This document shows positions 19,231 to 40,647 of a stretch of DNA of 64,000 bases, one piece after another (the stretch's first letter is position 1; each line of letters begins with the position of its first letter). Location: positions 310,001-374,000 of the forward strand of contig NC_006043.2 in assembly GCF_000006445.2 (NCBI RefSeq), in the 5' to 3' direction. The notes beneath the pieces are model-generated. The model made no database searches. It was not told the origin of the DNA and worked only from the letters and a program-made list of their open reading frames with translations. Source of the stretch: Debaryomyces hansenii CBS767 (taxonomy: Eukaryota > Ascomycota > Pichiomycetes > Serinales > Debaryomycetaceae). The position numbers and the translations under genes are program-made.

Positions 19231-19577
19231 AGGAAAGGCTGATAATAATAGAAATTCTCATATAGAATCAAAAGACTTATTAAGTCATGATATAATAAAA
19301 GTCAGTGCAGTAAGATTTCTTTGGAGTCTTTGCTATACCAAGTTTAGAAAGCTTAATTAATTTTAATGAAGACTTATTTAATATAAACGATACTTTAGGT
19401 TTTGCTGATTTGTTCGACTAATTGAATTATTTGTAAAACAGATTTCATTCTCAGTGAATTCTATACCTGAACAAATAACGCTTTATAATTAAATATAAAA
19501 TAGCGAATAATTTTTTCGTAACCAACTTCTTTGCATTGAATATTTACTTTATTCACATATGTGATCATATACTGGAA
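19231..19577. other. Intergenic between two pseudogenes
   Basis: AT-rich. May hold further decayed C-terminal regulator sequence, but nothing I can align by eye. Confidence 0.35.
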
Positions 19578-20254
19578 ATGAATAGATCTGTCACCCATGC
19601 ACTGATCTTCCTCTTTTTCTTGAACTAGAAGCAACACGCGATCCCGATTTATCCGGTAAAATATGTATGATGAGACATCTCAGAGAATTGTAGATGTCCT
19701 TTTAAAAGCATTTGGAGCAATTGCCGCATCACAAGGAATTTGTAATAACTTTACTCTGGAATCAATGATACTGACAACAATGTTTCTTTTGGGTATTATG
19801 AAACTATTTGTGGAGGATCTGGTGCAGGCCAAAGCTGGAATGGTCAAAATGCTGTCCAGTGTCATACGACCAACACCAGAATGACTGACGTTGAAATATT
19901 TTTGAAAAGCGCTATCCTGTTATATTACATGAATTTTCGATCCGACATGGATCCGGTGGTGTTGGTGAACACAGTGGTGGTAACAGAATAATCAGAGATA
20001 TTAAGTTTACCATTGCAAAGTTAGAAGTATCATGCGTAAAGGAGAGAAGGTCAATTGCACCATTTGGTTTATCAGGAGGTGGACCCGGTTTGAGAGGGTC
20101 AAATTATTGGTGCAGAAAATTAATATCTTCGAATAGTCAGCAAAAAATTTCTCTCGGTGGCAAATGTTCACTCAATGTGAACAAAGGAGACCGTATAATT
20201 ATCATGACTCCCGGTGGTGGTGGATATGGAAGTAAGAAAGTCATCAAATACTAA
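19578..20254 (+). pseudogene. Truncated, frameshifted 5-oxoprolinase (Oxp1) fragment
   Basis: 3' remnant of the ATP-dependent 5-oxoprolinase that opens 5-oxoproline to glutamate in the glutathione cycle. Only part of the C-terminal (HyuB-like) domain is left. Pieces lie in different frames: NRSVTHALIF, then TSQRIVDVLLKAFGAIAASQ, then after a shift SFGYYETICGGSGAGQSWNG and TTNTRMTDVEIF. After another shift at about 19900 comes EKRYPVILHEFSIRHGSGG, and the fragment ends in FGLSGGGPGLRGSNYW and IIIMTPGGGGYG before a stop. Each shift is one or two bases. About 1000 N-terminal codons of the roughly 1280-codon family are missing. Confidence 0.88.
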
Positions 20255-21501: not shown

Positions 21502-23376
21502 ATGGATAATAAGAGTACCAAGGAATCGGAGTTAGACTTTTCTTTGCGTTCAAAAGAACTAAACTCTCGTGAGGCCTCCGATATTTCCCTCAATAAAGGT
21601 AATGGAAATTCCGAAAACAGCTTAGATGAAGTTAAGGAACATAATAAATTTGTCTATCTGGGTGCATGGAACAAGAAATTATTGTACGTCGCTTACGCTG
21701 TTTTAATTATTACAGCATTTGTCGAAAGCTTTGCAAATAATTCTACCAGCTCTTTAGATTCGTATGCTACTTCAAGTTTTAATGAGCATGCCTTAATTGC
21801 AACCGTAGCTGTTGTATATAAGATTACAGCTATCTGTGCTTATCCGATTTTGGCGAAAATTGCAGACCTTTTGGGTAGAGCAGAAGGATTTACATTGTCA
21901 ATGATACTCTATAGCTTGGCCTACGTACTCTATGCGAGTTGTCAAAATGTGGATACATATGTTTGCGCTGAGATCTTTTTTGCTATTGGTAGGAATGGTT
22001 ATAGAATATTTCAACTTATTTTCATTGCTGATACATCATCCTTGATAAATAGAGGAATATTGTCTCAACTTCCAAATGCTATTGGTGCAATACCCTCTTT
22101 GTATGCTGGTTCTTATGTACAAGATGCATTTTTGGAGCATTCAACGTGGAGGTGGGGATATGGATCTTTTGCAATTATCTTAGCTGCCTTTTGCTTTCCT
22201 TTAGGTGGTATCATGTTTTATTTAGATAGAAGGGCTAAACAAAATGGACAAAAAAAGGTATACCAAATACTCGAAAATATTCCAAAAGATGCAAAATGGT
22301 ATGAGAAGGCCTATCAAATATTATTCGTGGAATTGGATTTGATCGGAGGAGTCTTATTATTGTGTGGATTTGCATTATTTTTTGTCCCTTTCACTGTAAC
22401 AGGAAAATCATCGTCCTATAAATGGCATGAGCCCAAATTAATAGTGATGCTTGTTATAGGATTCGTAATATTTTGTTGCTTCCTCGTGTGGAATACAAAA
22501 TTTGCAAAGAAGCCTTTCGTGCCTACACAAGCATTGAAGTCGAAGACCGTAGTTATTATTGTTGTGTTAGTTGCATTAGATCTATGTGAAAACTCTTCCT
22601 TTGCAACATATTTCAAGACTGTTTTACAAGTTGCTGGTTATTATAGTGCAGGAGCTGCTACCAGAATAGATAACTCCAAAAAAGTTACTGTTGATATATT
22701 CAACGTTTTCGGTGGACTTCTAATGAAATATACCAAAAGATCAAAAATATATGCTTTAATTGGAATTCCAATGTTAGTTTTGGGACATGGCTTATTAGTT
22801 TGGTTTATGCGTCGAGGTGATGGCGAAATGGCTAGTTACGCTTTGTTAGTTATGGCCGAAGTATTTATCGGGTTTGGTAGAGGCATGTACCAATGTGCAT
22901 TGCAAGTAACTATTCAAGCAATTGCAGGAATTGAAGGAATAGCTATGTCCACCGCTTTCTTCTTAGCATTCCAGTCTATTGGATCTTTGATAGGAAGCGC
23001 CATCTCTGGTGGTATTTGGAATACTGTGGTCTTGAGCAAGTTAAATTTGTATCTTCCTGAGGATGATAAAGATCTTGCCAAAAAGATTTACAAAAGCATT
23101 ACCGTTGCAATGTCCTATGAAAAAGGATCTGATATTAGAGATGGAATTAACAGGGCATATGCGGAGACTATCCAAATCATTGGTTGGACTGGTCTCGGAA
23201 TAATCGCACCTATGCTAATTTTAATGTTCTTCATTAAAGAGGTTAAGTTATCGGAAGCAAAGGATATTTATTCTGTCTCGATTTCTGAAGAAGAAATAAA
23301 AATTAAGGAGGAAAAAGAAATAGAAATTAAGGAGGAAAAAGAATCATTGAAAAAAAACACATCTAGAGGTCAATGA
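21502..23376 (+). CDS. Siderophore-iron transporter, ARN/SIT family (MFS)
   Basis: Proton-driven importer of ferric hydroxamate siderophores, 14-TM major facilitator type, 624 aa from ATG 21502. The 18 codons in frame upstream have no ATG. A charged cytosolic N-terminus of about 65 residues leads into the first membrane helix (KLLYVAYAVLIITAFVESF). Family markers include NNSTSSLDSYATSSFNEH, AKIADLLGRAEGF, STWRWGYGSFAII, LQVAGYYSAGAATRIDN and the amphipathic helix before the last membrane segment. The C-terminus has a short KEEKE-rich repeat. It resembles S. cerevisiae Arn1/Sit1 and Candida Sit1; substrate choice cannot be read from sequence. It is intact although flanked by pseudogenes and retroelements. 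Confidence 0.92.
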   Translation: MDNKSTKESELDFSLRSKELNSREASDISLNKGNGNSENSLDEVKEHNKFVYLGAWNKKLLYVAYAVLIITAFVESFANNSTSSLDSYATSSFNEHALIATVAVVYKITAICAYPILAKIADLLGRAEGFTLSMILYSLAYVLYASCQNVDTYVCAEIFFAIGRNGYRIFQLIFIADTSSLINRGILSQLPNAIGAIPSLYAGSYVQDAFLEHSTWRWGYGSFAIILAAFCFPLGGIMFYLDRRAKQNGQKKVYQILENIPKDAKWYEKAYQILFVELDLIGGVLLLCGFALFFVPFTVTGKSSSYKWHEPKLIVMLVIGFVIFCCFLVWNTKFAKKPFVPTQALKSKTVVIIVVLVALDLCENSSFATYFKTVLQVAGYYSAGAATRIDNSKKVTVDIFNVFGGLLMKYTKRSKIYALIGIPMLVLGHGLLVWFMRRGDGEMASYALLVMAEVFIGFGRGMYQCALQVTIQAIAGIEGIAMSTAFFLAFQSIGSLIGSAISGGIWNTVVLSKLNLYLPEDDKDLAKKIYKSITVAMSYEKGSDIRDGINRAYAETIQIIGWTGLGIIAPMLILMFFIKEVKLSEAKDIYSVSISEEEIKIKEEKEIEIKEEKESLKKNTSRGQ

Positions 23377-23499: not shown

Positions 23500-23867
23500 T
23501 GTTGAAATATTTAGTGAAAAATATTTTTAATGGGCAATTTACTTGAGAAAATGCAAACTAGTTGCAAAATCAAATAAACACTGCTTGTGAATATTCCCAT
23601 TCAGAGTGGGATGACCATGAGCTGATAAAATAATTAATTGAACTATTCAATACTGGTAAAGAGCCTAATTGAGGTCAATCTGAATACCTTTCAGATTGTA
23701 TTTAGATAGTAAGTAATATATATTTGAAATTATTGATTATACTGTGCAAACTGTTATATTGTATAAAAAACTGAAAAAGATAAAAAAGATACCGAAATGA
23801 CTTCCCCTTTAGAGAAATTAGTTCAAGATTGTGTACCAAGTTCCATTCAAAACCATCGTGTCATTGA
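23500..23867 (+). repeat. Diverged LTR of family C with start of gag
   Basis: Begins TGTTGAAATATTTAGTG and aligns, with many changes, to the antisense LTR-C copies at 31964, 34689 and 37414. It runs into a gag start at ATG 23797 (MTSPLEKLVQ). It is cut at 23867 by an LTR-A. This is the left edge of the retrotransposon block. Confidence 0.75.
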
Positions 23868-24322
23868 TGTTGAAATATATAAGTATATTTTATGCGAAGT
23901 CAGAATAAATTGAGAAATCATGTAAAGCGGCTGCAAATTCTTTTATATCTCAATAGAACCAGAATTCCGTTTGGCTTTCTATTGTTATACCATAAAGATT
24001 ACGCCCGCCTTATGATTGTTGAAGCTATCATTGGATAGTAGTTTTTCTTGGAAGAAAGGCACTGATAAAATGCCTTTCGGTTTCCATATATCTGCCTTCC
24101 CATTCGCTGTTTACCTGGAAAACGGGAAGCGTACTCCTATTCTTGTGCAAAGATTGGACTATATAAAGAGGTCTTTGGACCTCCTTGAATACAGAATTTA
24201 TATAGAGATTAAGTAAATTATATATTATAATTGACACTGACTAACTGATTAACTGACTGACTGATTACCTAACCTGATACTGACCTGATAATGTATGCTA
24301 CTTTCGAGAATTTACTTCAACA
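23868..24322 (+). repeat. LTR family A
   Basis: 455 bp from TGTTGAA to TTCAACA, nearly identical to the 457-bp copy at 39798. It is followed directly by a piece of pol rather than by a primer site, and the flanks show no 5-bp duplication, so it marks a rearrangement rather than a clean insertion. Confidence 0.85.
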
Positions 24323-24459
24323 GTTAGATATGGAGGAGCTCCAATCTCGTGGAAAAGCAAGAAACAGACTACAGTGGCAATGTCGACCACTGAAGCTGAG
24401 TATCTTGCATTGGGTGAGGCTACCAAAGAAGCGCTATGGATCATAATGTTGTTTGATGA
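24323..24459 (+). pseudogene. Fragment of copia pol (RNase H end)
   Basis: Encodes RYGGAPISWKSKKQTTVAMS and the following ALGEATKEALWIIMLFD, nearly identical to the RNase H region of the element ending at 39803. Cut on the left by LTR-A and on the right by LTR-B. Confidence 0.85.
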
Positions 24460-24877
24460 TATTGAAATATTTTAATGAGCCTGAAATCTACATTGCATAT
24501 TTTTAATGAGCATGCGATTAATTTGAGAAAATGTAATCTGGTTGCAAAAATATATTAAATTCCTATTCAAGTTAACAAATGGATTGCTCTTCTTAAATAT
24601 TTCTAGTTTAAGCCAAGTGGGTTAATAAGTGGGTTAGAAACCTTAAAACTGGCTAGTTTGAGTAATTAAATTGAGAATATTAATTACTACTAACGGTAAA
24701 GGTTTAATTGAGTAATTCTAATATTCTACTATATAAGAAGTCAATTGAAGAGCTAATTATATAGTATTTGGAGATTAAGTAAATTATATATTATAATACT
24801 GATTATACTGATTAAAAATTTGAAAAATTAAAAATGAATACTGATAGGACTTCACCTTTAGAGAGATTACTTCAAGA
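24460..24877 (+). repeat. 5' LTR of element B
   Basis: 418 bp starting TATTGAAATATTTTAATG and ending TTCAAGA just before the primer-binding site. The gag ATG (24834) lies inside it. Over the 151 bp shared with the truncated 3' copy (29881) I see one difference, which suggests a recent insertion. Confidence 0.85.
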
Positions 24878-24888
24878 GGTTATGAGTC
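24878..24888 (+). other. Primer-binding site of element B (half tRNA-iMet)
   Basis: GGTTATGAGTC directly follows the LTR. It is complementary, but for one base, to the anticodon-loop region of initiator tRNA-Met, the half-tRNA primer used by Ty5 and Copia. Confidence 0.75.
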
Positions 24889-25797
24889 GCTCTTCGAGCT
24901 TTACTGTTCCTGAATTGAGTAAGTTAGCTGGTGCTACTAACTATAATCAATGGTCTACTATGATCTTGAATCAACTGTATGAATTCAACTGTGACTTAGA
25001 CATGTTCCTTAACAATAGGTTTAAGGAAATTCCTGATATTATTGGTCTCGAACCCCGAGTCGAAGCAAAGATTCTTTCCCAATATCATGGTATTGTTGGA
25101 GCGTTAATGAGAAATACGCTTCCTGATAATCTTATCCACAAATATGTGTCGGAGAAGAATCTTTATGGACTTGCTATTTGGAATCGTCTTTATGATGACT
25201 TTGGAAAAATGACTGCTAAGCAGGAGGCCGATATGCTTCTGAAATTGCTTTTAAAACTTTTCACTCTGAACGACTCGTTGATTGAAAAGATGGAATTTTT
25301 AGAATCGAGTAGCTATGATGTTTTCCCTCTTACTGAGCAGAAACGGATTTGGTGTTTCTACTCGATATGTGATGAAAGGCTTCGGGAAAAGCTTCTTCAA
25401 CTCTATAAGCTGTCGCCTGAGCAGTTTACCTGGTTAAATGTGAGAAATGACATGGGTGATCTTATTGCGGCATCTACGCCCGCTATTGAACCTACTGTTG
25501 CTGGTGCCGTTTTTGCTCTACTGAAATCACCTCAGCGTCGAATTATGATCAAGTCCAAGTTGGTTTGTTTTAAATGCGGTGGCATTGGCCACAAGTCCAA
25601 CGTGTGTCCCTCTGTTGATGATGTTGATTACAGGAAACTGAAACCTCCTCCTAGTCACATTACTGCTGATGATGAATATCAATCGCTGCCCCCTCGTCCG
25701 GTTCGTGGGAAGCTTTGGGTTGCTTCCACTTCCACTTCCACGTTTCCTGATGGCTTCTATCTTGATTCGGGTGCTACTCTTCATGTTACGCACCAGA

Positions 25798-25879
25798 AGG
25801 AGCTATTACATGATTTCTCTGCTATCTCTGGATCTGTTAGGAGCTATTACATGATTTCTCTGCTATCTCTGGATCTGTT
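25798..25879 (+). repeat. 41-bp tandem duplication breaking element B
   Basis: Two exact 41-bp copies (25798-25838 and 25839-25879) beginning AGGAGCTATTAC. 41 is not a multiple of three, and the change of frame matches the observed shift from the gag/protease frame to the integrase frame. Confidence 0.95.
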
Positions 25880-26734
25880 ACTGGTCTTGCTTCGGACACA
25901 TCGTTTGAAATTATTGGTAAAGGAGACCTTCATTTCCTGTTGCCGGATGGTTCCCCTCTTACTCTTAGTGATGTGCACTATGTTCCAACTTGTGATCGAA
26001 ACCTTATTTCGGTTTCCAAAGCGACTCGTCGTGGCGCGCTGTTCTGTTTTCTGTCCAATTCAGTTCATGAATCTCGCTTAGGTCTTAAAGTTGGCACCCT
26101 TATTGGTCCTGAGAATGATCAACTTTATAAGTTTCTTTTGCCGCCTAAAGCCGCTCCCACGACGTCGGGTCGTATTTTGAATGCTACTTTCAATGCACAT
26201 TCTCGTCTCGGACACCCTAGTGCTACTGTTGAAAATAGGCTTGGAAAACACTATGCAACCTATGCTGAGGCTGCGAATTCCAAATCTGCTCAATCTAAAG
26301 ATATCTGTGAAGCGTGTGCTCGTGGAAAAGCTACACGTTCTCGTCCTAAGAAATCAACTTCTGACAGTATCACTGTTCAGGCTCCATTAGAACTTGTGCA
26401 TTCTGACGTATGTGGACCCTTTTCTCAACCCAGTTTGACCGATGATCGGTATTTTGTGGTTATTGTTGATGATTATACTCATTATATGACAGTGTATCCA
26501 ATTGCAGCTAAGTCTGCGGTTCCTGTGTGTATTTCTGATTTTATCTTGCGTGCAGAACGTTTCTTTCACAATCGTGGTGGATATCGTGTGGTGACGCTTC
26601 GTTCTGATAATGGTGGTGAGTATATGTCCTCCAGGTTTGACAATTATCTTGCTAATCGTGGAATTACTCACCAAACTACTGTTCCATATAATAGTCATCA
26701 AAATGCTGTCAGTGAACGAGCTATTAGAACCCTT

Positions 26735-27253
26735 TGTTGAAATATATTAGTATATTTTATGCGAAGTCAGAATAAATTGAGAAATCATGTAAAGCGTGTT
26801 GAAATATATTAGTATATTTTATGCGAAGTCAGAATAAATTGAGAAATCATGTAAAGCGGCTGCAAATTCGTTTATATCTCAATAGAACCAGAATGCCGTT
26901 TGGCTTTCTATTGTTATACCATAAAGATTACGCCCGCCTTATGATTGTTGAAGCTATCATTGGATAGCAGTTTTTCTTGGAAGAAAGGCACTGATAAAAT
27001 GCCTTTCGGTTTCCATATATCTGCCTTCCCATTCGCTGTTTACCTGGAAACAACGGGAAGCGTACTCCTATTCTTGTGGAAATATTGGACTATATAAAGA
27101 GGTCTTTGGACCTCCTTGAATACAGAATTTATATAGAGATCAAGTAAATTATATATTATAATTGACACTGACTAACTGATTAACTGACTGACTGATTACC
27201 TAACCTGATACTGACCTGATAATGTATGCTACTTTCGAGAATTTACTTCAACA
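26735..27253 (+). repeat. Solo LTR-A with 62-bp partial duplication
   Basis: A full 457-bp LTR-A (26797-27253) preceded by an extra copy of its first 62 bp (26735-26796). It is flanked by CCCTT on both sides (26730-26734 and 27254-27258), the 5-bp target duplication of a true insertion into the integrase region of element B. Confidence 0.95.
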
Positions 27254-29871
27254 CCCTTACCGAGAAAGCTCGTGTCATGATGTTTGATGTAAATACGCCC
27301 CTCAGCTTGTGGGCTGAGGCTGTTAATTGTGCTACCTTTATTGTTAATCGTTTGCCTTCGACTTCTGTAAAGAATGAGTATCCGTATAAACGCTGGTATA
27401 AGAAGTTCCCAGTGTTGGATGGATTGCGTCCGTTTGGATGTCTGGCCTATGCGTACATTCCTGAATCTGTACGCTCTTCGAAATTGTCACCTCGTTCTAT
27501 TCGAGGAGTTATGGTTGGGTATGCACCTACCCAACATGCGTACCGTATCTTTGATCTTGACTCCGGTACCGTTGTTGTTAGTAATAATGTAAAGTTCGAT
27601 GAATCTGCGTTTCCCTTCCGGTCTATGAACAATGTTCCACATCCTGTTATGGCGTCGAAGCTGTCTTCTTCACCTGTGTCTGTGTCTTCCTTTTTCTCAG
27701 TACCTGGGGTTCTGGCCACACATGAGTTGCCTGATACTGCAATGGCTATTGATCAGGTTGAGGTGGATACTTTGATGAGTGAATCTACACCAATGCCAAG
27801 TCTGGATTCCCTGATTCCTGCTCTGGAAGATTTAGTGTCTACTCAGGATGTTGTGATGCGTGACTCGTCACCTGTACCTGTCCTGGATGTTCAGACAATT
27901 CGTCTGGCTGATGATGATTCTTCCACTCGTGCTGTCACAAATATTTCTTCTGAGTCCCGGATTCGCTCTGTGTCAGCTCGATTATCTTCACCTGTACGTG
28001 AACCTGCAGTTGTTGAACCATCATCACCCCCAATTCCTGCGAGTCGGAAACTGTGTCCTCTTATTGAATATATTTCTGATTCTGAGGATTCTGCTTCAGG
28101 GGAAGATGATAATGAAGTCATTGATAACTCGAATGATGAGGACTATGTTGAACCAATAAGAAGAAGAAAAGCTGTTACGTTACCCGAAAGACTGCGTAGA
28201 CGGTCAGAGTTATCGTCTGATGATGAAACTGAACCTTCTAAGAAACAGAAATATGAGAAACTGAATGAAACTCTGTGTACTGCCTCAGGCTCCTCACTTG
28301 TTGTTAAAGGGTCTGGTTATTTCATGTCACATGCCTATGTTGTCAGTACAAAGAAAGATGGTGTACCAGTGACATACAAACAGGCAATACTGAGTGACGA
28401 AGCTGAAAAATGGAAAATCGCCATGGATAGTGAGATGAGTGCTCACTACTCAAATAATACATGGGATTTAGTACTGTTGCCTAAGGATAGAAAAGCAATA
28501 GGCAACAGATGGGTATTTACCAAGAAAGATGACGGTAGATACAAAGCTAGACTAGTAGCACAGGGCTTCAGTCAGGTTCCAGGGGAAGACTACTTGACGA
28601 CGTTCAGTCCTGTAATCAGATATGAGTCTGTGAAGCTACTTCTAGCATTCAGTGCTGTTGATCAGAGAGTAATTCACCAGATGGATGTTGATACCGCATT
28701 TTTGAACGGTACTGTAGAAGAAACACTTTATATGAAACAGCCTGTAGGTTTTGTAGATGAAGCTGAACCAGAGAAGGTGTGCAAGTTGGACAAATCGTTG
28801 TATGGATTGAAACAAGCACCGATATGTTGGAATACTACAATAATGAAATTTCTCACTGAGCATGGATTCAAAAGGACTGAGAGTGAACTAGGATTATATA
28901 TCAAGGATAATATAATACTAGGATTGTATGTGGATGATATCCTCATCTCAGGAAAGAATACTATTGAGATTGAAAAAGTAAAGAAACTTCTTTCGCTGAG
29001 ATTCAAAATGAAGGATCTAGGGATTGCAAGGAAATTTCTAGGCATCAATATTGAGCAGAGAGAAGATGGAATAAGTATCTGCCTCAATGACTATATTGAA
29101 AAGATTCTAGAGGAATTTAATATGACTGATTCGAATCCTGTTGCAACTCCGTCATTGGTTGGACAGGACTTACACAAAATTGATGATTCGCCTGAATGCG
29201 ATGCAAGTAACTATCGATCTTTGGTCGGGAAGCTATTATTTGCATCTACCACTGTAAGAACTGATATCAGCTACGCAGTAGGAATGTTAAGCAGGTATTT
29301 GTCCAAGCCTACTGAGAAACACATGAAATGTGCTAAGCATATGCTTAGATATTTGAAAGGAACCCAAGACATGGGTCACCATTATAATGGAGATAATAAA
29401 TTGCTGATTTATTGCGACAGTGACTGGGGAAGTGATTCCAGTGATAGAAAATCAATCACAGGATACATAGTGAAATATGGAGGAGCTCCAATTTCGTGGA
29501 AAAGTAAGAAACAACCTACTGTGGCATTGTCTACTACTGAAGCTGAGTATCTTGCTTTGACAGAAGCTATTAAAGAAGCCATGTGGATGGCCCAACTCTT
29601 CAAACAATTGAATATACCATTGAAACTTCCAATTCCTGTCTATGAAGATAATAATTCGTGTATTCTCCTTGCGGAACATCCTGTGTTCCACCAGCGCACC
29701 AAACACATTGATATTCGCTATCACTTTATAAGAGAGCACATTATTCAAAATGAAATTAAATTATGTCAAATTGATACGAATAATCAAGTTGCAGATATGC
29801 TAACCAAAGGGTTGAACAAAGTGAAGTTCACGAATCTACGTTCGTTAGCAGGTATGAAGAATATTAGGATT

Positions 29872-29880
29872 AAGGGGAGA
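29872..29880 (+). other. Polypurine tract of element B
   Basis: AAGGGGAGA directly before the 3' LTR, the plus-strand priming site. The equivalent AAGGGGAAG precedes the LTR at 39798. Confidence 0.75.
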
Positions 29881-30031
29881 TATTGAAATATTTTAATGAG
29901 CCTGAAATCAACATTGCATATTTTTAATGAGCATGCGATTAATTTGAGAAAATGTAATCTGGTTGCAAAAATATATTAAATTCCTATTCAAGTTAACAAA
30001 TGGATTGCTCTTCTTAAATATTTCTAGTTTA
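29881..30031 (+). repeat. Truncated 3' LTR of element B
   Basis: First 151 bp of LTR-B, overlapping the gag-pol stop codon, then a sharp junction to other sequence at 30032. Confidence 0.88.
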
Positions 30032-30071
30032 TCTTGAAGTAATTTCTCTAAGGGGGAACTCATTTCAGTAT
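30032..30071 (-). repeat. Short antisense LTR-C/gag start fragment
   Basis: About 40 bp matching the gag start of family C (MSSPLEKLLQ) on the minus strand, as in the array copies at 34680-34720. It is the scar of a rearrangement that removed the rest of the element B 3' LTR. Confidence 0.8.
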
Positions 30072-31122
30072 TGTTGAAATATATTAGTATATTTTATGCG
30101 AAGTCAGAATTAATTGAGAGTTTATATAAACTGGCTGCGAAACATTGTTATTCTGATTATTTTATTTGAATACAATACCATATCTACAAGGCTCATTGTT
30201 CAAATGATAACGATAAGCTTATCTGTAATTGTTCAAGTATATAATGAGTTATCATTGGATAGCTCCTTATCTTGAATGATAAATACAGATAACAAGCCTC
30301 GTAGATCTAATATATCTGCCTTCCCATTGGCCGTTTACTTGGAAACAACGGGAAACGTATGTTGAAATATCTTAGTATATTTTATGCGAAGTCAGAATTA
30401 ATTGAGAGTTTATATAAACTGGCTGCGAAACATTGTTATTCGGATTATTTTATTAGAATACAATACCATATCTACAAGGTTCATTGTTCAAATGATAACG
30501 ATAAGCTTATCTGTAATTGTTCAAGTGTATAATGAGTTGTCATTGGATAGCTCCTTATCTTGAATGATAAATACAGATAACAAGCCTCGTAGATCTAATA
30601 AATCTGCCTTCCCATTGGCCGTTTACTTGGAAACAACGGGAAACGTATGTTGAAATATCTTAGTATATTTTATGCGAAGTCAGAATTAATTGAGAGTTTA
30701 TATAAACTGGCTGCGAAACATTGTTATTCGGATTATTTTATTAGAATACAATACCATATCTACAAGGTTCATTGTTCAAATGATAACGATAAGCTTATCT
30801 GTAATTGTTCAAGTGTATAATGAGTTGTCATTGGATAGCTCCTTATCTTGAATGATAAATACAGATAACAAGCCTCGTAGATCTAATAAATCTGCCTTCC
30901 CATTGGCCGTTTACTTGGAAACAACGGGAAACGTACTCCTATTCTTGTGGAAATACTGGACTATATAGAGGTCTTTGGACCTCCTAGAATACAGAATTTA
31001 TATAGAGATTAAGTAAATTATATATTATAATTGACACTGACTAACTGATTAACTGACTGACTGATTACCTAACCTGATACTGACCTGATAATGTATGCTA
31101 CTTTCGAGAATTTACTTCAACA
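30072..31122 (+). repeat. LTR-A variant with a tandem triplication of its 5' 288 bp
   Basis: TGTTGAA starts occur at 30072, 30360 and 30648, exactly 288 bp apart. The three copies are nearly identical and only the last continues through a normal LTR end (30648-31122, 475 bp). The sequence is a second LTR-A subtype that differs from the 457-bp copies in its first part. It acts as the 5' LTR of the element whose gag begins at 31091. Confidence 0.92.
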
Positions 31123-31351
31123 GGTTATGAGCCATTTTTTGGACTTTGATGTTACGGAGCAGGATAAGCTCCGTGGTATTGATAACTACAAACTTTGGGC
31201 TGCTATGGTAAAGTCCAGACTGCTGGACCTTGACTGCCACTTAGATCTGTATCTAAGTAATGGGATACACAAGGTGAAAACCTTTTTCTTCGCAGATGGG
31301 GAAAAAACCCATCCATACCTTCGGGAAAAGAGATCCAAATTATTTTCCTAA
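31091..31351 (+). pseudogene. Start of a family-A gag, broken near the gap
   Basis: The ATG lies inside the LTR (MYATFENLLQQ) and the frame continues through the primer site into a Gag N-terminus (KLRGIDNYKLWAAMVKSRLL). Homology fades after about 31260, where sequence quality falls, and a stop follows. Confidence 0.75.
31123..31133 (+). other. Primer-binding site of family A (half tRNA-iMet)
   Basis: GGTTATGAGCC immediately after the LTR end CA. It is a perfect complement to GGCUCAUAACC of the initiator tRNA-Met anticodon arm. The same bases encode part of Gag. Confidence 0.85.
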
Positions 31352-31621
31352 AAAGGGGGCCTGTGTTATACATGGAAAAACTTGGGCCCTTAATTCCCGA
31401 GGCAGTGGTTGATGTGGAAAAAAATTTTTTTCTTCTATCCTTCCCCCATATAACGGGGGTGAGTAATTTTCACGTTATGTTTTTTATTATATTCCCGTCT
31501 TCCCTAAAACTTTTAACCGTCCACTTTTCTCCCCCCCCCCGGGCTTTTTTCCAACCCCTGTGAGGGACAAAAATAATATATATAATTAAGTCAAAAATAA
31601 AGGGTAGAGATCGAAAGAGAG

Positions 31622-31721
31622 NNNNNNNNNNNNNNNNNNNNNNNNNNNNNNNNNNNNNNNNNNNNNNNNNNNNNNNNNNNNNNNNNNNNNNNNNNNNNNN
31701 NNNNNNNNNNNNNNNNNNNNN
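31622..31721. other. Assembly gap (100 N) with poor flanks
   Basis: Exactly 100 N, usually a placeholder for unknown length. About 350 bp to the left and 55 bp to the right have long homopolymers (including ten or more C) and do not match the otherwise near-identical repeat copies, so they look like low-quality read ends. Confidence 0.95.
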
Positions 31722-31993
31722 GAAAATAAAGTGAAAATCCCTTGGGGGGCCCCGGGATGGGGGAACCCACCCCATCCTTTACCATGCACAGATGGTCGAT
31801 TCTGAGTGCGGAATTCATCATCCAGTCCAGATGAACCACGACCAGTAGTATGTCTCGGTTTCCGATAGTCAGCATCGCTAACAGAAGGACACACATTAGA
31901 TTTGTGGCCAATGCCACCACATTTAAAGCAAACCAATTTGGACTGAATCATAATTTTGCGCGCTTGAAGTAATTTCTCTAAGGGGGAACTCAT
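31722..31993 (-). pseudogene. Antisense gag fragment, array copy 0
   Basis: Same as the fragment at 34263-34718: MSSPLEKLLQ joined to the zinc knuckle CFKCGGIGHKSNVC. The end nearest the gap is unreliable. Confidence 0.75.
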
Positions 31994-32370
31994 TTCAGTA
32001 TTTGTTTTTCTATTTTTTTTTAGGTTTTACACAATATAACAGTTTGCACAATATAATCAATAATTTCAAGTATATATTACTTACTATCTAAAATACAATC
32101 GGAATACCTTTTAAATTGACCTCCTTATATAGTAGAATATTGGGATTACACATTTGAACGCTGTTTCCATTAACGGTAATGGGTATTACTTAAACCAGTA
32201 ATGAATAGTTTAATTAACCTTTTTATCGGCTCATAGTCATCCAATTTGTCTTAGAATGGGAATATTCACTGGTAGTATTCCCATTGTTAACTCAATCAAG
32301 TATTTATTTCGTTTTGCAACCTGTTTGCATTTTCTCAAATAAATTGCATTCTCACTAAAATATTTCATCA
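31964..32370 (-). repeat. LTR family C, antisense, copy 1
   Basis: On the minus strand it starts TGATGAAATATTTTAGTG (32370) and runs to TTCAAG in the gag start. About 407 bp; the 3' boundary is approximate because the primer site is deleted. Confidence 0.8.
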
Positions 32371-32397
32371 CCAAATATTTCATTAGATGGGCCATCT

Positions 32398-33743
32398 ATG
32401 GATATCGTGGGCCCACCTTCTCGTGGTTCGCTGTCGTCCTCTCCTGGTATTACCACCACTCCTAGAGTGGTTGAGCCGTTGTCCCCTCTCGTAACGCAAG
32501 AGGTGTCTCGTCCTCGTATCGAGTACATTTCTGACTCAGAAGCTTCGGTTCCAGGGGAAGACTATGCTACTTCTTTCTATGAACGTCATCACGATAACTT
32601 TGATAAGTCTGATGATGAGGATTATGTTGATGAACCTGTGAGGAGAAGAAGAGCTATTACTATGCCTGATAGACTGCGTAGAAGATCAGAAGTATCGTCG
32701 GATGGAGAAACTGAACCTTCTAAGAAACTGAAATATGAAACACTGCATACTGAATCAGACTCCTCGCTTGTTGTCAGAGGATCTGGTTATTTCATGTCAC
32801 ACGCCTATGTTGTTAGTACCAAGAAAGATGGTGTACCAGTAACATACAAACAGGCAATGCTGAGTGACGAAGCTGAAAAATGGAAAATCGCCATGGATAG
32901 TGAGATGAGTGCTCACTACTCAAATAATACATGGGATTTAGTACTGTTGCCTAAGGATAGAAAAGCAATAGGCAACAGATGGGTATTTACCAAAAAGGAT
33001 GATGGTAGATACAAAGCTAGACTAGTAGCACAGGGCTTCAGTCAGGTTCCAGGGGAAGATTACTTGGATACCTTCAGTCCTGTGATCAGATATGAATCTG
33101 TGAAGCTACTTCTAGCATTCAGTGCTGTTGATAATAGAGTTGTCCATCAGATGGATGTAGATACCGCATTTTTGAACGGTACTGTTGAGGAAACACTCTA
33201 TATGAAACAGCCTGTTGGTTTTATTAATGAGAATGAACCAGAGAAAGTCTGCAAGTTGAACAAATCGTTGTATGGATTGAAACAAGCACCGATATGTTGG
33301 AATACTACAATTTCAGATTTTCTTGCTGAACATAGGTTCAACCGAATTGACACTGAGTTAGGCATATATGTTCGAGGGAACATAATTATTGGCCTTTATG
33401 TTGATGATATCCTTATATCAGGAAAGGATATGAAGGAAATTGAAGATGTAAAGAAAATGCTCGCACTGAAGTTTAAAATGAAAGACTTAGGGGTTGCGAA
33501 GAAGTTTCTAGGAATTAATATTGCTCAGGATACCAATGGTATCAAGATATGTCTCTATGACTACATTGGAAAGGTGTTGCAGGACTTTGAAATGACTGAT
33601 GCAAACACTGTGGCAACTCCGACATTGGCCGGAGAAGACTTACACAAGGACGACACAGAAGAATGTGATGCCACCAGGTACCGCTCTCTAGTAGGAAAGC
33701 TATTATTTGCATCTACTACTGTTCGAACAGATATTGCGTACGC
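32398..33743 (+). pseudogene. Pol fragment (linker and RT), array copy 1
   Basis: Encodes the integrase-RT linker with the ISDSEAS acidic stretch and RRRSE basic stretch, then reverse transcriptase (RWVFTKKDDGRYKARLVAQG, YVDDILISGKD). It ends at RTDIAYAV, where the frame runs into an antisense LTR-A and stops at 33768. Gag, protease, integrase and RNase H are missing. Confidence 0.9.
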
Positions 33744-34262
33744 TGTTGAAGTAAATTCTCGAAAGTAGCATACATTATCAGGTCAGTATCAGGTTAGGTA
33801 ATCAGTCAGTCAGTTAATCAGTTAGTCAGTGTCAATTATAATATATAATTTACTTGATCTCTATATAAATTCTGTATTCAAGGAGGTCCAAAGACCTCTT
33901 TATATAGTCCAATATTTCCACAAGAATAGGAGTACGCTTCCCGTTGTTTCCAGGTAAACAGCGAATGGGAAGGCAGATATATGGAAACCGAAAGGCATTT
34001 TATCAGTGCCTTTCTTCCAAGAAAAACTGCTATCCAATGATAGCTTCAACAATCATAAGGCGGGCGTAATCTTTATGGTATAACAATAGAAAGCCAAACG
34101 GCATTCTGGTTCTATTGAGATATAAACGAATTTGCAGCCGCTTTACATGATTTCTCAATTTATTCTGACTTCGCATAAAATATACTAATATATTTCAACA
34201 CGCTTTACATGATTTCTCAATTTATTCTGACTTCGCATAAAATATACTAATATATTTCAACA
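33744..34262 (-). repeat. LTR family A, antisense, 62-bp duplication, copy 1
   Basis: 519 bp with the same 62-bp 5' duplication as the solo LTR at 26735. The flanks (TACGC and TCGAT) do not match, so it joins two unrelated element pieces and was not simply inserted. TGTTG is shared at the pol junction. Confidence 0.9.
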
Positions 34263-34718
34263 TCGATCACAGGAAGGAACATATTGGACATCAGTGAGAG
34301 TAAGGAAAGAACCATCAGGCAACAGAAAGTTAAGGGTTCCTTTCCCAGCAATTTCAAACAGGGTTCCCGAGTCAAGACCAGTAATTGACCCAGAACTATC
34401 AGAAAAATCATGTAATAGCTCCTTCTGACACGTAACATGAAGAGTCGCACCAGAATCAAGGTAGAATCCATCGGGGACACGCGATGTGGAAGCCACCCAT
34501 ACATTACCATGCACAGATGGTCGATTCTGAGTGCGGAATTCATCATCCAGTCCAGATGAACCACGACCAGTAGTATGTCTCGGTTTCCGATAGTCAGCAT
34601 CGCTAACAGAAGGACACACATTAGATTTGTGGCCAATGCCACCACATTTAAAGCAAACCAATTTGGACTGAATCATAATTTTGCGCGCTTGAAGTAATTT
34701 CTCTAAGGGGGAACTCAT
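34263..34718 (-). pseudogene. Antisense gag-protease fragment with internal deletion, copy 1
   Basis: Starts MSSPLEKLLQ and jumps straight to the zinc-knuckle region, a loss of roughly 650 bp (most of Gag and the primer site) compared with element B. It then has the zinc knuckle and protease DSGATLHVT and is cut by LTR-A at YVPSCDR. Confidence 0.88.
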
Positions 34719-35095
34719 TTCAGTATTTGTTTTTCTATTTTTTTTTAGGTTTTACACAATATAACAGTTTGCACAATATAATCAATAATTTCAAGTATAT
34801 ATTACTTACTATCTAAAATACAATCGGAATACCTTTTAAATTGACCTCCTTATATAGTAGAATATTGGGATTACACATTTGAACGCTGTTTCCATTAACG
34901 GTAATGGGTATTACTTAAACCAGTAATGAATAGTTTAATTAACCTTTTTATCGGCTCATAGTCATCCAATTTGTCTTAGAATGGGAATATTCACTGGTAG
35001 TATTCCCATTGTTAACTCAATCAAGTATTTATTTCGTTTTGCAACCTGTTTGCATTTTCTCAAATAAATTGCATTCTCACTAAAATATTTCATCA
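34689..35095 (-). repeat. LTR family C, antisense, copy 2
   Basis: Same as the copy at 31964-32370, shifted by 2725 bp. Confidence 0.85.
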
Positions 35096-35122
35096 CCAAA
35101 TATTTCATTAGATGGGCCATCT

Positions 35123-36468
35123 ATGGATATCGTGGGCCCACCTTCTCGTGGTTCGCTGTCGTCCTCTCCTGGTATTACCACCACTCCTAGAGTGGTTGAA
35201 CCGTTGTCCCCTCTCGTAACGCAAGAGGTGTCTCGTCCTCGTATCGAGTACATTTCTGACTCAGAAGCTTCGGTTCCAGGGGAAGACTATGCTACTTCTT
35301 TCTATGAACGTCATCACGATAACTTTGATAAGTCTGATGATGAGGATTATGTTGATGAACCTGTGAGGAGAAGAAGAGCTATTACTATGCCTGATAGACT
35401 GCGTAGAAGATCAGAAGTATCGTCGGATGGAGAAACTGAACCTTCTAAGAAACTGAAATATGAAACACTGCATACTGAATCAGACTCCTCGCTTGTTGTC
35501 AGAGGATCTGGTTATTTCATGTCACACGCCTATGTTGTTAGTACCAAGAAAGATGGTGTACCAGTAACATACAAACAGGCAATGCTGAGTGACGAAGCTG
35601 AAAAATGGAAAATCGCCATGGATAGTGAGATGAGTGCTCACTACTCAAATAATACATGGGATTTAGTACTGTTGCCTAAGGATAGAAAAGCAATAGGCAA
35701 CAGATGGGTATTTACCAAAAAGGATGATGGTAGATACAAAGCTAGACTAGTAGCACAGGGCTTCAGTCAGGTTCCAGGGGAAGATTACTTGGATACCTTC
35801 AGTCCTGTGATCAGATATGAATCTGTGAAGCTACTTCTAGCATTCAGTGCTGTTGATAATAGAGTTGTCCATCAGATGGATGTAGATACCGCATTTTTGA
35901 ACGGTACTGTTGAGGAAACACTCTATATGAAACAGCCTGTTGGTTTTATTAATGAGAATGAACCAGAGAAAGTCTGCAAGTTGAACAAATCGTTGTATGG
36001 ATTGAAACAAGCACCGATATGTTGGAATACTACAATTTCAGATTTTCTTGCTGAACATAGGTTCAACCGAATTGACACTGAGTTAGGCATATATGTTCGA
36101 GGGAACATAATTATTGGCCTTTATGTTGATGATATCCTTATATCAGGAAAGGATATGAAGGAAATTGAAGATGTAAAGAAAATGCTCGCACTGAAGTTTA
36201 AAATGAAAGACTTAGGGGTTGCGAAGAAGTTTCTAGGAATTAATATTGCTCAGGATACCAATGGTATCAAGATATGTCTCTATGACTACATTGGAAAGGT
36301 GTTGCAGGACTTTGAAATGACTGATGCAAACACTGTGGCAACTCCGACATTGGCCGGAGAAGACTTACACAAGGACGACACAGAAGAATGTGATGCCACC
36401 AGGTACCGCTCTCTAGTAGGAAAGCTATTATTTGCATCTACTACTGTTCGAACAGATATTGCGTACGC
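35123..36468 (+). pseudogene. Pol fragment (linker and RT), array copy 2
   Basis: Same structure and almost the same sequence as the copy at 32398, again truncated at RTDIAYAV by the antisense LTR-A. Confidence 0.9.
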
Positions 36469-36987
36469 TGTTGAAGTAAATTCTCGAAAGTAGCATACAT
36501 TATCAGGTCAGTATCAGGTTAGGTAATCAGTCAGTCAGTTAATCAGTTAGTCAGTGTCAATTATAATATATAATTTACTTGATCTCTATATAAATTCTGT
36601 ATTCAAGGAGGTCCAAAGACCTCTTTATATAGTCCAATATTTCCACAAGAATAGGAGTACGCTTCCCGTTGTTTCCAGGTAAACAGCGAATGGGAAGGCA
36701 GATATATGGAAACCGAAAGGCATTTTATCAGTGCCTTTCTTCCAAGAAAAACTACTATCCAATGATAGCTTCAACAATCATAAGGCGGGCGTAATCTTTA
36801 TGGTATAACAATAGAAAGCCAAACGGCATTCTGGTTCTATTGAGATATAAAAGAATTTGCAGCCGCTTTACATGATTTCTCAATTTATTCTGACTTCGCA
36901 TAAAATATACTAATATATTTCAACACGCTTTACATGATTTCTCAATTTATTCTGACTTCGCATAAAATATACTAATATATTTCAACA
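36469..36987 (-). repeat. LTR family A, antisense, 62-bp duplication, copy 2
   Basis: As the copy at 33744, with a few base differences (for example near 36752 and 36850). Confidence 0.9.
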
Positions 36988-37443
36988 TCGATCACAGGAA
37001 GGAACATATTGGACATCAGTGAGAGTAAGGAAAGAACCATCAGGCAACAGAAAGTTAAGGGTTCCTTTCCCAGCAATTTCAAACAGGGTTCCCGAGTCAA
37101 GACCAGTAATTGACCCAGAACTATCAGAAAAATCATGTAATAGCTCCTTCTGACACGTAACATGAAGAGTCGCACCAGAATCAAGGTAGAATCCATCGGG
37201 GACACGCGATGTGGAAGCCACCCATACATTACCATGCACAGATGGTCGATTCTGAGTGCGGAATTCATCATCCAGTCCAGATGAACCACGACCAGTAGTA
37301 TGTCTCGGTTTCCGATAGTCAGCATCGCTAACAGAAGGACACACATTAGATTTGTGGCCAATGCCACCACATTTAAAGCAAACCAATTTGGACTGAATCA
37401 TAATTTTGCGCGCTTGAAGTAATTTCTCTAAGGGGGAACTCAT
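36988..37443 (-). pseudogene. Antisense gag-protease fragment with internal deletion, copy 2
   Basis: As the copy at 34263, with the same deletion junction. Confidence 0.88.
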
Positions 37444-37820
37444 TTCAGTATTTGTTTTTCTATTTTTTTTTAGGTTTTACACAATATAACAGTTTGCACA
37501 ATATAATCAATAATTTCAAGTATATATTACTTACTATCTAAAATACAATCGGAATACCTTTTAAATTGACCTCCTTATATAGTAGAATATTGGGATTACA
37601 CATTTGAACGCTGTTTCCATTAACGGTAATGGGTATTACTTAAACCAGTAATGAATAGTTTAATTAACCTTTTTATCGGCTCATAGTCATCCAATTTGTC
37701 TTAGAATGGGAATATTCACTGGTAGTATTCCCATTGTTAACTCAATCAAGTATTTATTTCGTTTTGCAACCTGTTTGCATTTTCTCAAATAAATTGCATT
37801 CTCACTAAAATATTTCATCA
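37414..37820 (-). repeat. LTR family C, antisense, copy 3
   Basis: As the copies at 31964 and 34689. Confidence 0.85.
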
Positions 37821-37847
37821 CCAAATATTTCATTAGATGGGCCATCT

Positions 37848-39803
37848 ATGGATATCGTGGGCCCACCTTCTCGTGGTTCGCTGTCGTCCTCTCCTGGTAT
37901 TACCACCACTCCTAGAGTGGTTGAACCGTTGTCCCCTCTCGTAACGCAAGAGGTGTCTCGTCCTCGTATCGAGTACATTTCTGACTCAGAAGCTTCGGTT
38001 CCAGGGGAAGACTATGCTACTTCTTTCTATGAACGTCATCACGATAACTTTGATAAGTCTGATGATGAGGATTATGTTGATGAACCTGTGAGGAGAAGAA
38101 GAGCTATTACTATGCCTGATAGACTGCGTAGAAGATCAGAAGTATCGTCGGATGGAGAAACTGAACCTTCTAAGAAACTGAAATATGAAACACTGCATAC
38201 TGAATCAGACTCCTCGCTTGTTGTCAGAGGATCTGGTTATTTCATGTCACACGCCTATGTTGTTAGTACCAAGAAAGATGGTGTACCAGTAACATACAAA
38301 CAGGCAATGCTGAGTGACGAAGCTGAAAAATGGAAAATCGCCATGGATAGTGAGATGAGTGCTCACTACTCAAATAATACATGGGATTTAGTACTGTTGC
38401 CTAAGGATAGAAAAGCAATAGGCAACAGATGGGTATTTACCAAAAAGGATGATGGTAGATACAAAGCTAGACTAGTAGCACAGGGCTTCAGTCAGGTTCC
38501 AGGGGAAGATTACTTGGATACCTTCAGTCCTGTGATCAGATATGAATCTGTGAAGCTACTTCTAGCATTCAGTGCTGTTGATAATAGAGTTGTCCATCAG
38601 ATGGATGTAGATACCGCATTTTTGAACGGTACTGTTGAGGAAACACTCTATATGAAACAGCCTGTTGGTTTTATTAATGAGAATGAACCAGAGAAAGTCT
38701 GCAAGTTGAACAAATCGTTGTATGGATTGAAACAAGCACCGATATGTTGGAATACTACAATTTCAGATTTTCTTGCTGAACATAGGTTCAACCGAATTGA
38801 CACTGAGTTAGGCATATATGTTCGAGGGAACATAATTATTGGCCTTTATGTTGATGATATCCTTATATCAGGAAAGGATATGAAGGAAATTGAAGATGTA
38901 AAGAAAATGCTCGCACTGAAGTTTAAAATGAAAGACTTAGGGGTTGCGAAGAAGTTTCTAGGAATTAATATTGCTCAGGATACCAATGGTATCAAGATAT
39001 GTCTCTATGACTACATTGGAAAGGTGTTGCAGGACTTTGAAATGACTGATGCAAACACTGTGGCAACTCCGACATTGGCCGGAGAAGACTTACACAAGGA
39101 CGACACAGAAGAATGTGATGCCACCAGGTACCGCTCTCTAGTAGGAAAGCTATTATTTGCATCTACTACTGTTCGAACAGATATTGCGTACGCTGTTGGG
39201 ATACTTAGTAGACACTTAGCCAAACCCTCTGAGATGCATATGAAATGTGCCAAACATGTCCTCAGATATCTTAAAGGAACCCAAGATATCGGCCACCATT
39301 ATACTGGAGACAGCTCATTGGATATATATTGTGATAGTGACTGGGCTAGTGACAAGAGCGACAGGAAATCAATTACAGGATACATTGTTAGATATGGAGG
39401 AGCTCCAATCTCGTGGAAAAGCAAGAAACAGACTACAGTGGCAATGTCGACCACTGAAGCTGAATATCTCGCATTGGGTGAGGCTACCAAAGAAGCGCTA
39501 TGGATCATAATGTTGTTTGACGAGATGCGTGTGCCATTACAATTACCCATTTCGATCCACGAAGATAATAACTCATGTATACTCCTTGCAGAGCACCCTG
39601 TATTTCACCTGCGCACTAAGCATATTGACATACGCCATCATTTCATAAGAGAGCATATAATAAAGAAACAAATTAAACTTTGTCAGATTAGCACCCATAC
39701 ACAAATTGCGGACATGCTTACAAAAGGATTAAATAAGATTAAGTTCCAGGACTTGAGAAGTCTTGCTGGAATGACAAGAATTAGGATTAAGGGGAAGTGT
39801 TGA
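37848..39803 (+). pseudogene. Family-A pol 3' half (linker, RT, RNase H), array copy 3
   Basis: An open frame of 651 codons covering the linker, reverse transcriptase (YVDDILISGKD) and a complete RNase H (YCDSDWASDKSDRKSITGY, KHIDIRHHFIREH, ADMLTKGLNK). It ends at a polypurine tract (39789-39797) and a proper 3' LTR. The protease and integrase are missing, so this is the 3' half of an element. It is the only array copy that continues past RTDIAYAV and is probably the source of the others. Confidence 0.9.
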
Positions 39804-40254
39804 AATATATTAGTATATTTTATGCGAAGTCAGAATAAATTGAGAAATCATGTAAAGCGGCTGCAAATTCTTTTATATCTCAATAGAACCAGAATGCCGT
39901 TTGGCTTTCTATTGTTATACCATAAAGATTACGCCCGCCTTATGATTGTTGAAGCTATCATTGGATAGCAGTTTTTCTTGGAAGAAAGGCACTGATAAAA
40001 TGCCTTTCGGTTTCCATATATCTGCCTTCCCATTCGCTGTTTACCTGGAAACAACGGGAAGCGTATTCCTATTCTTGTGCAAATATTGGACTATATAAAG
40101 AGGTCTTTGGACCTCCTTGAATACAGAATTTATATAGAGATTAAGTAAATTATATATTATAATTGACACTGACTAACTGATTAACTGACTGACTGATTAC
40201 CTAACCTGATACTGACCTGATAATGTATGCTACTTTCGAGAATTTACTTCAACA
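39798..40254 (+). repeat. LTR family A (3' LTR), right edge of block
   Basis: 457 bp, TGTTGAA to TTCAACA, directly after the polypurine tract. Unique chromosomal sequence begins at 40255. Confidence 0.92.
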
Positions 40255-40647
40255 GACTTCAATATCCAATAAGAAGTTGTGAACCAAAGGAATCAGCTAA
40301 TTACTACGTGATAGGTCAGTAAAGGACATGTCTATATATTAATAGATTAGAATACGGTCAACAGCTTGGCATGTAGCATGCAAAATATATGCCAACTATT
40401 CTAACTCCTTATTATTTGATAGTCTTGAATATTAACGGTAATCGGTTTATCTAAAAATTTTTCTAAATATGAGCAGGAGCCTATATGCATTATAGATGTG
40501 AATGAACTATGTATTACAGACTAAGAATGTATAGAAAGTTTTAAAAACGAAAAAAAACTGAAAATATCCATATTTACTAGTCCATGGGCCCTCATGAATA
40601 ATTGGTAGAGAATCCCTCGATTACAAAATCATTATTTAAATTCCAAT
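40255..40647. other. Intergenic between retrotransposon block and RRP6
   Basis: Unique AT-rich sequence with no LTR similarity and no gene seen. It holds the RRP6 3' end. Confidence 0.5.

What the first reader, a model, noticed from the sequence alone, without database searches (positions are those of the whole stretch)
23500..40254. Ty5-like retrotransposon block as a candidate centromere
About 16.8 kb made only of copia-type elements of Ty5 style (single gag-pol frame, half tRNA-iMet primer), nested, inverted and tandem, with no host gene, lies inside an otherwise compact gene-rich region. Clusters of Ty5-like elements (Tdh5, Tps5) mark predicted centromeres in Debaryomyces hansenii and Scheffersomyces stipitis. 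The opposed LTR-A copies also give long inverted repeats, a feature of some CTG-clade centromeres. The neighbouring decay of two genes on the left fits a low-recombination pericentromere.
Basis: partly seen in the sequence, partly recalled or inferred. Interest (0 to 1): 0.85.

Follow-up and report, generated by a model that had tools for sequence, protein, structure and literature searches.

The report
Ty5 retrotransposon cluster marking yeast centromere
This block of jumping-gene copies is very probably the centromere region of one chromosome of a Debaryomyces yeast; every one of the seven chromosomes has one such block, which agrees with what is already published.

Summary
Window 23503-40262 is Ty5-like copia retrotransposon sequence except 466 bases around a 100-N assembly gap, with no host gene. 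The genome (12.18 Mb, 8 contigs) fits Debaryomyces hansenii CBS767; that name is my inference. Inside lie 49 of 54 pol matches and 32 of 35 RVT_2 matches; 3 outside in each belong to another copia family. Of exact matches to LTR ends, 52 of 52, 34 of 34 and 6 of 6 lie inside. A few degenerate relics lie on the arms. So recent copies land only there, or survive only there. Papers already say each D. hansenii chromosome has one Tdh5 island that is probably its centromere (PMC3284337), and that Hi-C was used to place its centromeres (PMC4477656). Two side arguments fail: the block is GC-richer than its flanks (6 of 6 clusters read in full), and its inverted repeats are LTR copies. No Cse4 data were available. 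Smaller additions: gaps in 5 of 6 clusters, a 2,725-base tandem array, and a chimeric junction shared by two chromosomes that may partly be misassembly.

The parts
21502..23376 (+). Left flanking host gene, major facilitator transporter (624 aa), intact
   Evidence: PF07690
23503..23867 (+). Degenerate LTR relics at the left edge of the block
   Evidence: masked by matches to other clusters from 23503 on; 23671-23827 is 85% LTR-C
23868..24322 (+). LTR-A copy, followed to 24469 by a pol C-terminal fragment
   Evidence: 98.5% to LTR-A; pol residues 739-788
24458..24877 (+). 5' LTR of the LTR-B element, followed by primer site GGTTATGAG
24834..26081 (+). gag frame of the LTR-B element, broken near 25.8 kb
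   Evidence: ORF; PF17241 and zf-CCHC
26735..27253 (+). LTR-A insertion in the pol of the LTR-B element, with an internal 62-base duplication and 5-base target duplication CCCTT; the copy on contig C4 is empty here
27253..29886 (+). pol frame of the LTR-B element
   Evidence: RVT_2, SH3_retrovirus; 98% to C4 copy
29879..30075 (+). Chimeric junction: LTR-B cut at base 153, then about 40 bases of an inverted LTR-C end; found again twice on contig C4
30072..31122 (+). Two 288-base pieces and one full copy of an LTR-A-like LTR
31123..31133 (+). Primer-binding site GGTTATGAGCC, complementary to the initiator-tRNA anticodon arm (tRNA sequence recalled)
   Evidence: 13-base anticodon-arm pattern found 3 times in the genome, not checked to be tRNA genes
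31263..31745 (.). Poor sequence with a 100-N assembly gap at 31622-31721
31746..39198 (.). Tandem array, period 2,725: inverted gag fragment, inverted LTR-C, forward pol fragment, inverted LTR-A; two full units and a partial third
37848..39803 (+). pol frame at the right end
   Evidence: RVT_2
39798..40254 (+). 3' LTR-A, right edge of the block
40648..42978 (-). Right flanking host gene, RRP6-like exosome exonuclease

Best explanation
This is the Ty5-like (Tdh5) cluster of one chromosome of what is very probably Debaryomyces hansenii, and very probably that chromosome's regional centromere. Shown here: the elements occupy one site per chromosome; copies with intact LTR ends were found only there; insertions nest in older ones with 5-base target duplications; copies are further rearranged. 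Inferred: Cse4 (CENP-A) chromatin sits on or beside the block, and the element's integrase is drawn to that chromatin, so that new copies land in a gene-free place and pile up. The clusters more likely mark the centromere than create it.
For: One cluster per chromosome-sized contig: 49 of 54 pol matches, 72 of 74 LTR-A rows, 49 of 55 LTR-B rows, 32 of 35 RVT_2 matches, 14 of 15 Ty5 Gag matches with the 15th 4.5 kb beyond my C4 bound. Exact LTR-end matches inside: 52 of 52, 34 of 34, 6 of 6, reversed-pattern control 0. Another copia family has 3 copies, all outside. Published for D. hansenii. Target duplications and an empty site.
Against: No Cse4 or Hi-C data seen. The block is GC-richer than its flanks in 6 of 6 clusters, although PMC3284337 words the islands as GC-poor. 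No consistent skew switch, and PMC2924309 found no skew signal in D. hansenii. A few relics lie on arms. Several Ty5 clusters have been called centromeres by inference only. Species name inferred.
Confidence: 0.9

Rival explanations
1. The clusters are gene-free safe havens. Integration is roughly random, copies elsewhere were purged by selection or recombination, and the link to the centromere is indirect.
For: Degenerate relics on arms at a handful of places; compact gene-rich flanks.
Against: Three near-identical-scoring copies of another copia family persist on arms. Exact LTR ends occur only in the clusters. One site per chromosome is not explained by safety alone.
Confidence: 0.15
2. Ty5-like LTRs themselves build the centromere: the elements are centromere-making, not only centromere-seeking.
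For: In C1 nothing but Ty5-derived sequence is left after masking, apart from the gap region. PMC12711049 reports an LTR-origin hypothesis for point centromeres by others.
Against: PMC12711049 found Ty5-like elements present in two W. anomalus isolates and absent in a third, and favours association. Nothing here tests function.
Confidence: 0.12
3. Details of the block, namely the tandem array and the segment identical to contig C4, are assembly errors of a clone-based assembly.
For: N gaps lie in 5 of 6 clusters read in full. C1 338900-341262 equals C4 484658-487020 over 2,363 bases, starting beside the C4 gap and ending at the poor sequence by the C1 gap. Bases beside the C4 gap look like a cloning adaptor (recalled).
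Against: Units 1 and 2 differ at 5 positions. A further inverted C1/C4 match of 3,107 bases has 14 mismatches and does not end at a gap. The one-cluster-per-chromosome result does not depend on these details.
Confidence: 0.4

Closest known systems
Predicted D. hansenii centromeres, Tdh5 islands (stated in PMC3284337, citing Butler 2009, Dujon 2010, Lynch 2010)
   Same: One island of degenerate Tdh5 retrotransposons per chromosome; this appears to be one of them.
   Different: The islands are called GC-poor there; the blocks I measured are GC-richer than their flanks.
Scheffersomyces stipitis Tps5 centromeres (PMC8546629, passages)
   Same: Regional centromeres recognised as the only large Ty5-type (Tps5) cluster of each chromosome, about 20-40 kb.
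   Different: Those also hold non-autonomous LARD elements; none was looked for here. Blocks here measure 15-28 kb with gaps.
Ty5-cluster centromeres of Cyberlindnera sargentensis (PMC12711049, passages)
   Same: One Ty5-like cluster per chromosome; no shared non-Ty5 sequence found.
   Different: There Hi-C confirms the place and all copies are broken; here long open frames exist in some clusters and I had no Hi-C.
Inverted-repeat centromeres such as Candida tropicalis
   Same: Repeats shared between the centromeres of several chromosomes.
   Different: Inverted arms here are LTR copies of at most 519 bases, not repeats flanking a core.

Membership tests
Ty5-type copia retrotransposon (Tdh5) | Ty5-type gag and copia-type RT | tested here: met
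   PF17241, zf-CCHC, RVT_2, SH3-like, Pol_BBD
Ty5-type copia retrotransposon (Tdh5) | Primer site complementary to the initiator-tRNA anticodon arm | tested here: met
   GGTTATGAGCC after the LTR at 31123; tRNA sequence recalled, 13-base pattern found 3 times, not checked as tRNA genes
Ty5-type copia retrotransposon (Tdh5) | Single gag-pol frame | tested here: met
   not in this window, but gag and RT matches share open frames of 1,492-1,502 aa on C2, C4 and C7
Ty5-type copia retrotransposon (Tdh5) | LTRs with TG...CA ends and 5-base target duplications | tested here: met
   LTR-A TGTTG...CAACA; CCCTT in C1 with empty site in C4, CAATC in C3; several other LTR pairs show no duplication
Ty5-associated regional centromere | One cluster per chromosome, none elsewhere | tested here: met
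   7 of 7 chromosome-sized contigs; only relics elsewhere
Ty5-associated regional centromere | Cse4/CENP-A occupancy | not testable with these tools
   needs ChIP; no D. hansenii Cse4 data seen in the listings
Ty5-associated regional centromere | Hi-C clustering of the sites | not testable with these tools
   PMC4477656 says a Hi-C study placed D. hansenii centromeres; that study was not held, so coordinates were not compared
GC-trough centromere | Local GC minimum at the site | tested here: not met
   clusters 0.380-0.408, flanks 0.333-0.363, 6 of 6 clusters; wider or codon-position trough not tested
Inverted-repeat centromere (C. tropicalis type) | Long inverted repeats flanking a core | tested here: not met
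   longest arms 519 bases, LTR copies

The most novel reading that the evidence does not exclude
Tdh5 integrase is actively directed to centromeric (Cse4) chromatin, and the seven centromeres, held together in the nucleus, exchange retrotransposon sequence with each other, so that a chimeric junction formed once is now found on two chromosomes and in two orientations.
Probability: 0.35. Interest if true: 0.5.

Novelty: already known. Interest (0 to 1): 0.27.

Why it matters
It supports, from sequence and a whole-genome count, a published centromere prediction for a non-model yeast, and gives a clear case of confined retrotransposition: copies with intact LTR ends sit at one place per chromosome, while another copia family sits elsewhere. 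It also shows that five of the six clusters read in full contain assembly gaps, so these centromeres are not fully known in this assembly.

Tried and rejected
GC trough over the block: not found. Skew switch across six clusters: right minus left GC skew is up in three and down in three. Inverted repeats as a centromere feature: they are LTR copies. A shared non-Ty5 core: BLASTN of six clusters against each other left nothing unmasked in C1 apart from the gap region; unmasked stretches of other clusters (for example C3 988667-990047, C5 505428-506641) match none of the six at that threshold; short motifs were not searched, and C7 was not included. Synteny with known centromeres: RRP6 and REI1 were not found in the main text of PMC8262905, nor RRP6, LAS21, REI1 and SIT1 in PMC7263194. 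Genome-wide GC and control regions: not obtained. The BLAST-type LTR searches scored only 40 of 46 and 40 of 52 candidates, so I added three uncapped-looking pattern searches of LTR ends; they agree.

Full report
What is there. The block between the MFS gene (ending at 23376) and the RRP6-like gene (40648-42978, minus strand) is a mosaic of Ty5-like copia pieces. I distinguished four LTR types (A, an A-like type, B, C). An LTR-B element (24458-30031) has a Ty5-type gag (PF17241, CCHC) and a pol part (SH3-like, RVT_2). An LTR-A copy sits in its pol at 26735-27253 with the 5-base duplication CCCTT; the matching element on contig C4 lacks the insertion and has one CCCTT, so this is real nested transposition. 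A chimeric junction and two 288-base LTR pieces lead to a full LTR followed by the primer site GGTTATGAGCC at 31123. After the gap comes a tandem array of period 2,725: two full units with 5 differences and a third partial one. The block ends with a 3' LTR-A at 39798-40254.

Assembly quality. 31622-31721 is a run of 100 N with poor sequence on both sides, so 16.8 kb is not a true length. Of six clusters read in full, five contain an N run (C1, C2, C4, C5, C6; not C3). The four C7 pieces held have none, but C7 was not read in full. Bases beside the C4 gap look like a cloning adaptor (recalled, not tested).

Which genome. The window is G000:C1:310001-374000 of a 12,181,948-base assembly in 8 contigs. 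PMC5499181 lists D. hansenii CBS767 with 12.2 Mb and 7 chromosomes (passage). Among named hits in the 120 listed of 3,884, the RRP6-like protein is closest (57%) to Scheffersomyces xylosifermentans and S. stipitis; seven unnamed proteins are closer. The species name is an inference.

One cluster per chromosome. A pol search gave 54 matches; 49 lie in one cluster on each of C1 to C7. The other five are 3 long copies of another copia family (32% identity) and 2 short diverged scraps (C2:770838, C7:1547667). LTR-A: 74 rows, 72 inside; the 2 outside belong to one relic at C1:949030-949440. LTR-B: 55 rows, 49 inside, 6 outside, the longest of these 226 bases at 70% identity. In these two searches only 40 of 46 and 40 of 52 candidates were scored. 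RVT_2: 35 matches, 32 inside, of which 2 are below the curated cut-off; the 3 outside are the other family. Ty5 Gag: 15 matches, 14 inside and one 4.5 kb right of the C4 cluster as I bounded it. Pattern searches with up to 3 mismatches check this independently. LTR-A left end: 58 matches, 52 exact, all 52 exact ones inside; of the 6 inexact ones, one is the C1:949 kb relic and one lies 0.3 kb beyond my C6 bound. LTR-A right end: 41 matches, 34 exact, all inside; the C1:949 kb relic is the one outside match, with 1 mismatch. LTR-B left end: 7 matches, 6 exact and inside, the seventh 43 bases left of my C7 bound. The reversed-pattern control gave 0 in each. Cluster bounds were drawn from these hits; they sum to 131,820 bases, 1.08% of the genome. 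I give no chance probability, because copies within a cluster are not independent (tandem copies and duplications).

Age and confinement. The 26 LTR-A rows with at least 95% identity and over 300 bases all lie in clusters. Open frames of 1,492-1,502 aa holding both gag and RT matches exist on C2, C4 and C7. Relics occur on chromosome arms; of these the C1:949 kb one is the best preserved. Because another copia family persists on the arms, the simplest reading is targeted integration; selective loss elsewhere is not excluded.

Exchange between clusters. Many long segments are nearly identical between clusters; most are copies of the same elements. The chimeric junction at 29879-30075, however, recurs identically on C4 twice, once inverted. 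C1 338900-341262 equals C4 484658-487020 over 2,363 bases, but this block touches gap regions on both contigs and may be misassembly. The inverted C4 match (3,107 bases, 14 mismatches) does not end at a gap. Exchange or duplication between centromeres is therefore suggested, not shown.

GC: clusters C1 to C6 have 0.380, 0.408, 0.394, 0.387, 0.388 and 0.405, each above both of its flanks (0.333-0.363), so no local trough. Skew: no consistent pattern, in line with PMC2924309, which found none in D. hansenii. Decayed genes: a Fungal_trans-domain gene reduced to 17686-18597 with shorter frames after it, and frames at 19660-20254 that look like a hydantoinase/oxoprolinase by eye (not tested).

Relatives. 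The pol protein's named relatives in the listing include Candida jiufengensis (44%), [Candida] boidinii (42%) and Ogataea polymorpha (50% over 58% of the query); the best hits are unnamed (120 of 1,854 listed). O. polymorpha is reported to have Ty5-like clusters at its centromeres (PMC12711049, passage).

Literature. PMC3284337 (passages) states that each D. [quoted passage not shown] PMC7263194 (passages) and PMC7482064 (passage) repeat the association. PMC4477656 (passages) says a Hi-C study determined centromere positions in D. hansenii among others. The meta3C paper PMC4381813 (passages and section 7) included strain CBS767 and reports visible centromere co-localisation for each species of the mix. 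PMC12711049 (passages and Discussion) describes Ty5-cluster centromeres at Hi-C peaks in another order and argues that the elements are associated rather than centromere-making. Lynch 2010 and the Hi-C study themselves were not held.

Verdict. Open points are which DNA Cse4 occupies, whether Tdh5 targets it, whether centromeres exchange sequence, and what lies in the gaps.

Noticed in passing
G000:C2:330647-332233, C3:1072910-1074496, C3:1190399-1191985: Three long copies of another copia family (32% identity to the Ty5-like pol, open frames of 1,340 aa), all outside the clusters.
   Followed up: partly
G000:C1:949030-949440, C1:1090321, C2:770838, C2:1311639, C5:35668, C7:1355987-1356303, C7:1545924-1547822: Diverged or very short Ty5-like relics on chromosome arms; they could be escaped insertions or former centromere sites. 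The C1:949 kb one is the best preserved.
   Followed up: partly
L025:4060-6744 (G000:C3:969060-971744, minus): A telomerase reverse transcriptase-like gene (Telomerase_RBD, RVT_1; 894 aa) lies about 3.4 kb from the left edge of the C3 cluster.
   Followed up: yes
G000:C4:484531-484657: Bases on both sides of the C4 assembly gap resemble a cloning adaptor (recalled), a sign of uncleaned clone ends inside the cluster.
   Followed up: no
G000:C3:988667-990047: A 1.4-kb stretch without Ty5 matches inside the C3 cluster, with a 208-aa ORF at 989299-989922. So not every cluster is free of other sequence.
   Followed up: no
G000:C5:513648-516221 and 517581-520154: A 2,574-base direct duplication, 99.9% identical, inside the C5 cluster, a second recent local duplication like the one in the window.
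   Followed up: no
window 17686-20254: Two decayed genes left of the block: a Fungal_trans-domain gene and frames resembling a hydantoinase/oxoprolinase by eye.
   Followed up: partly
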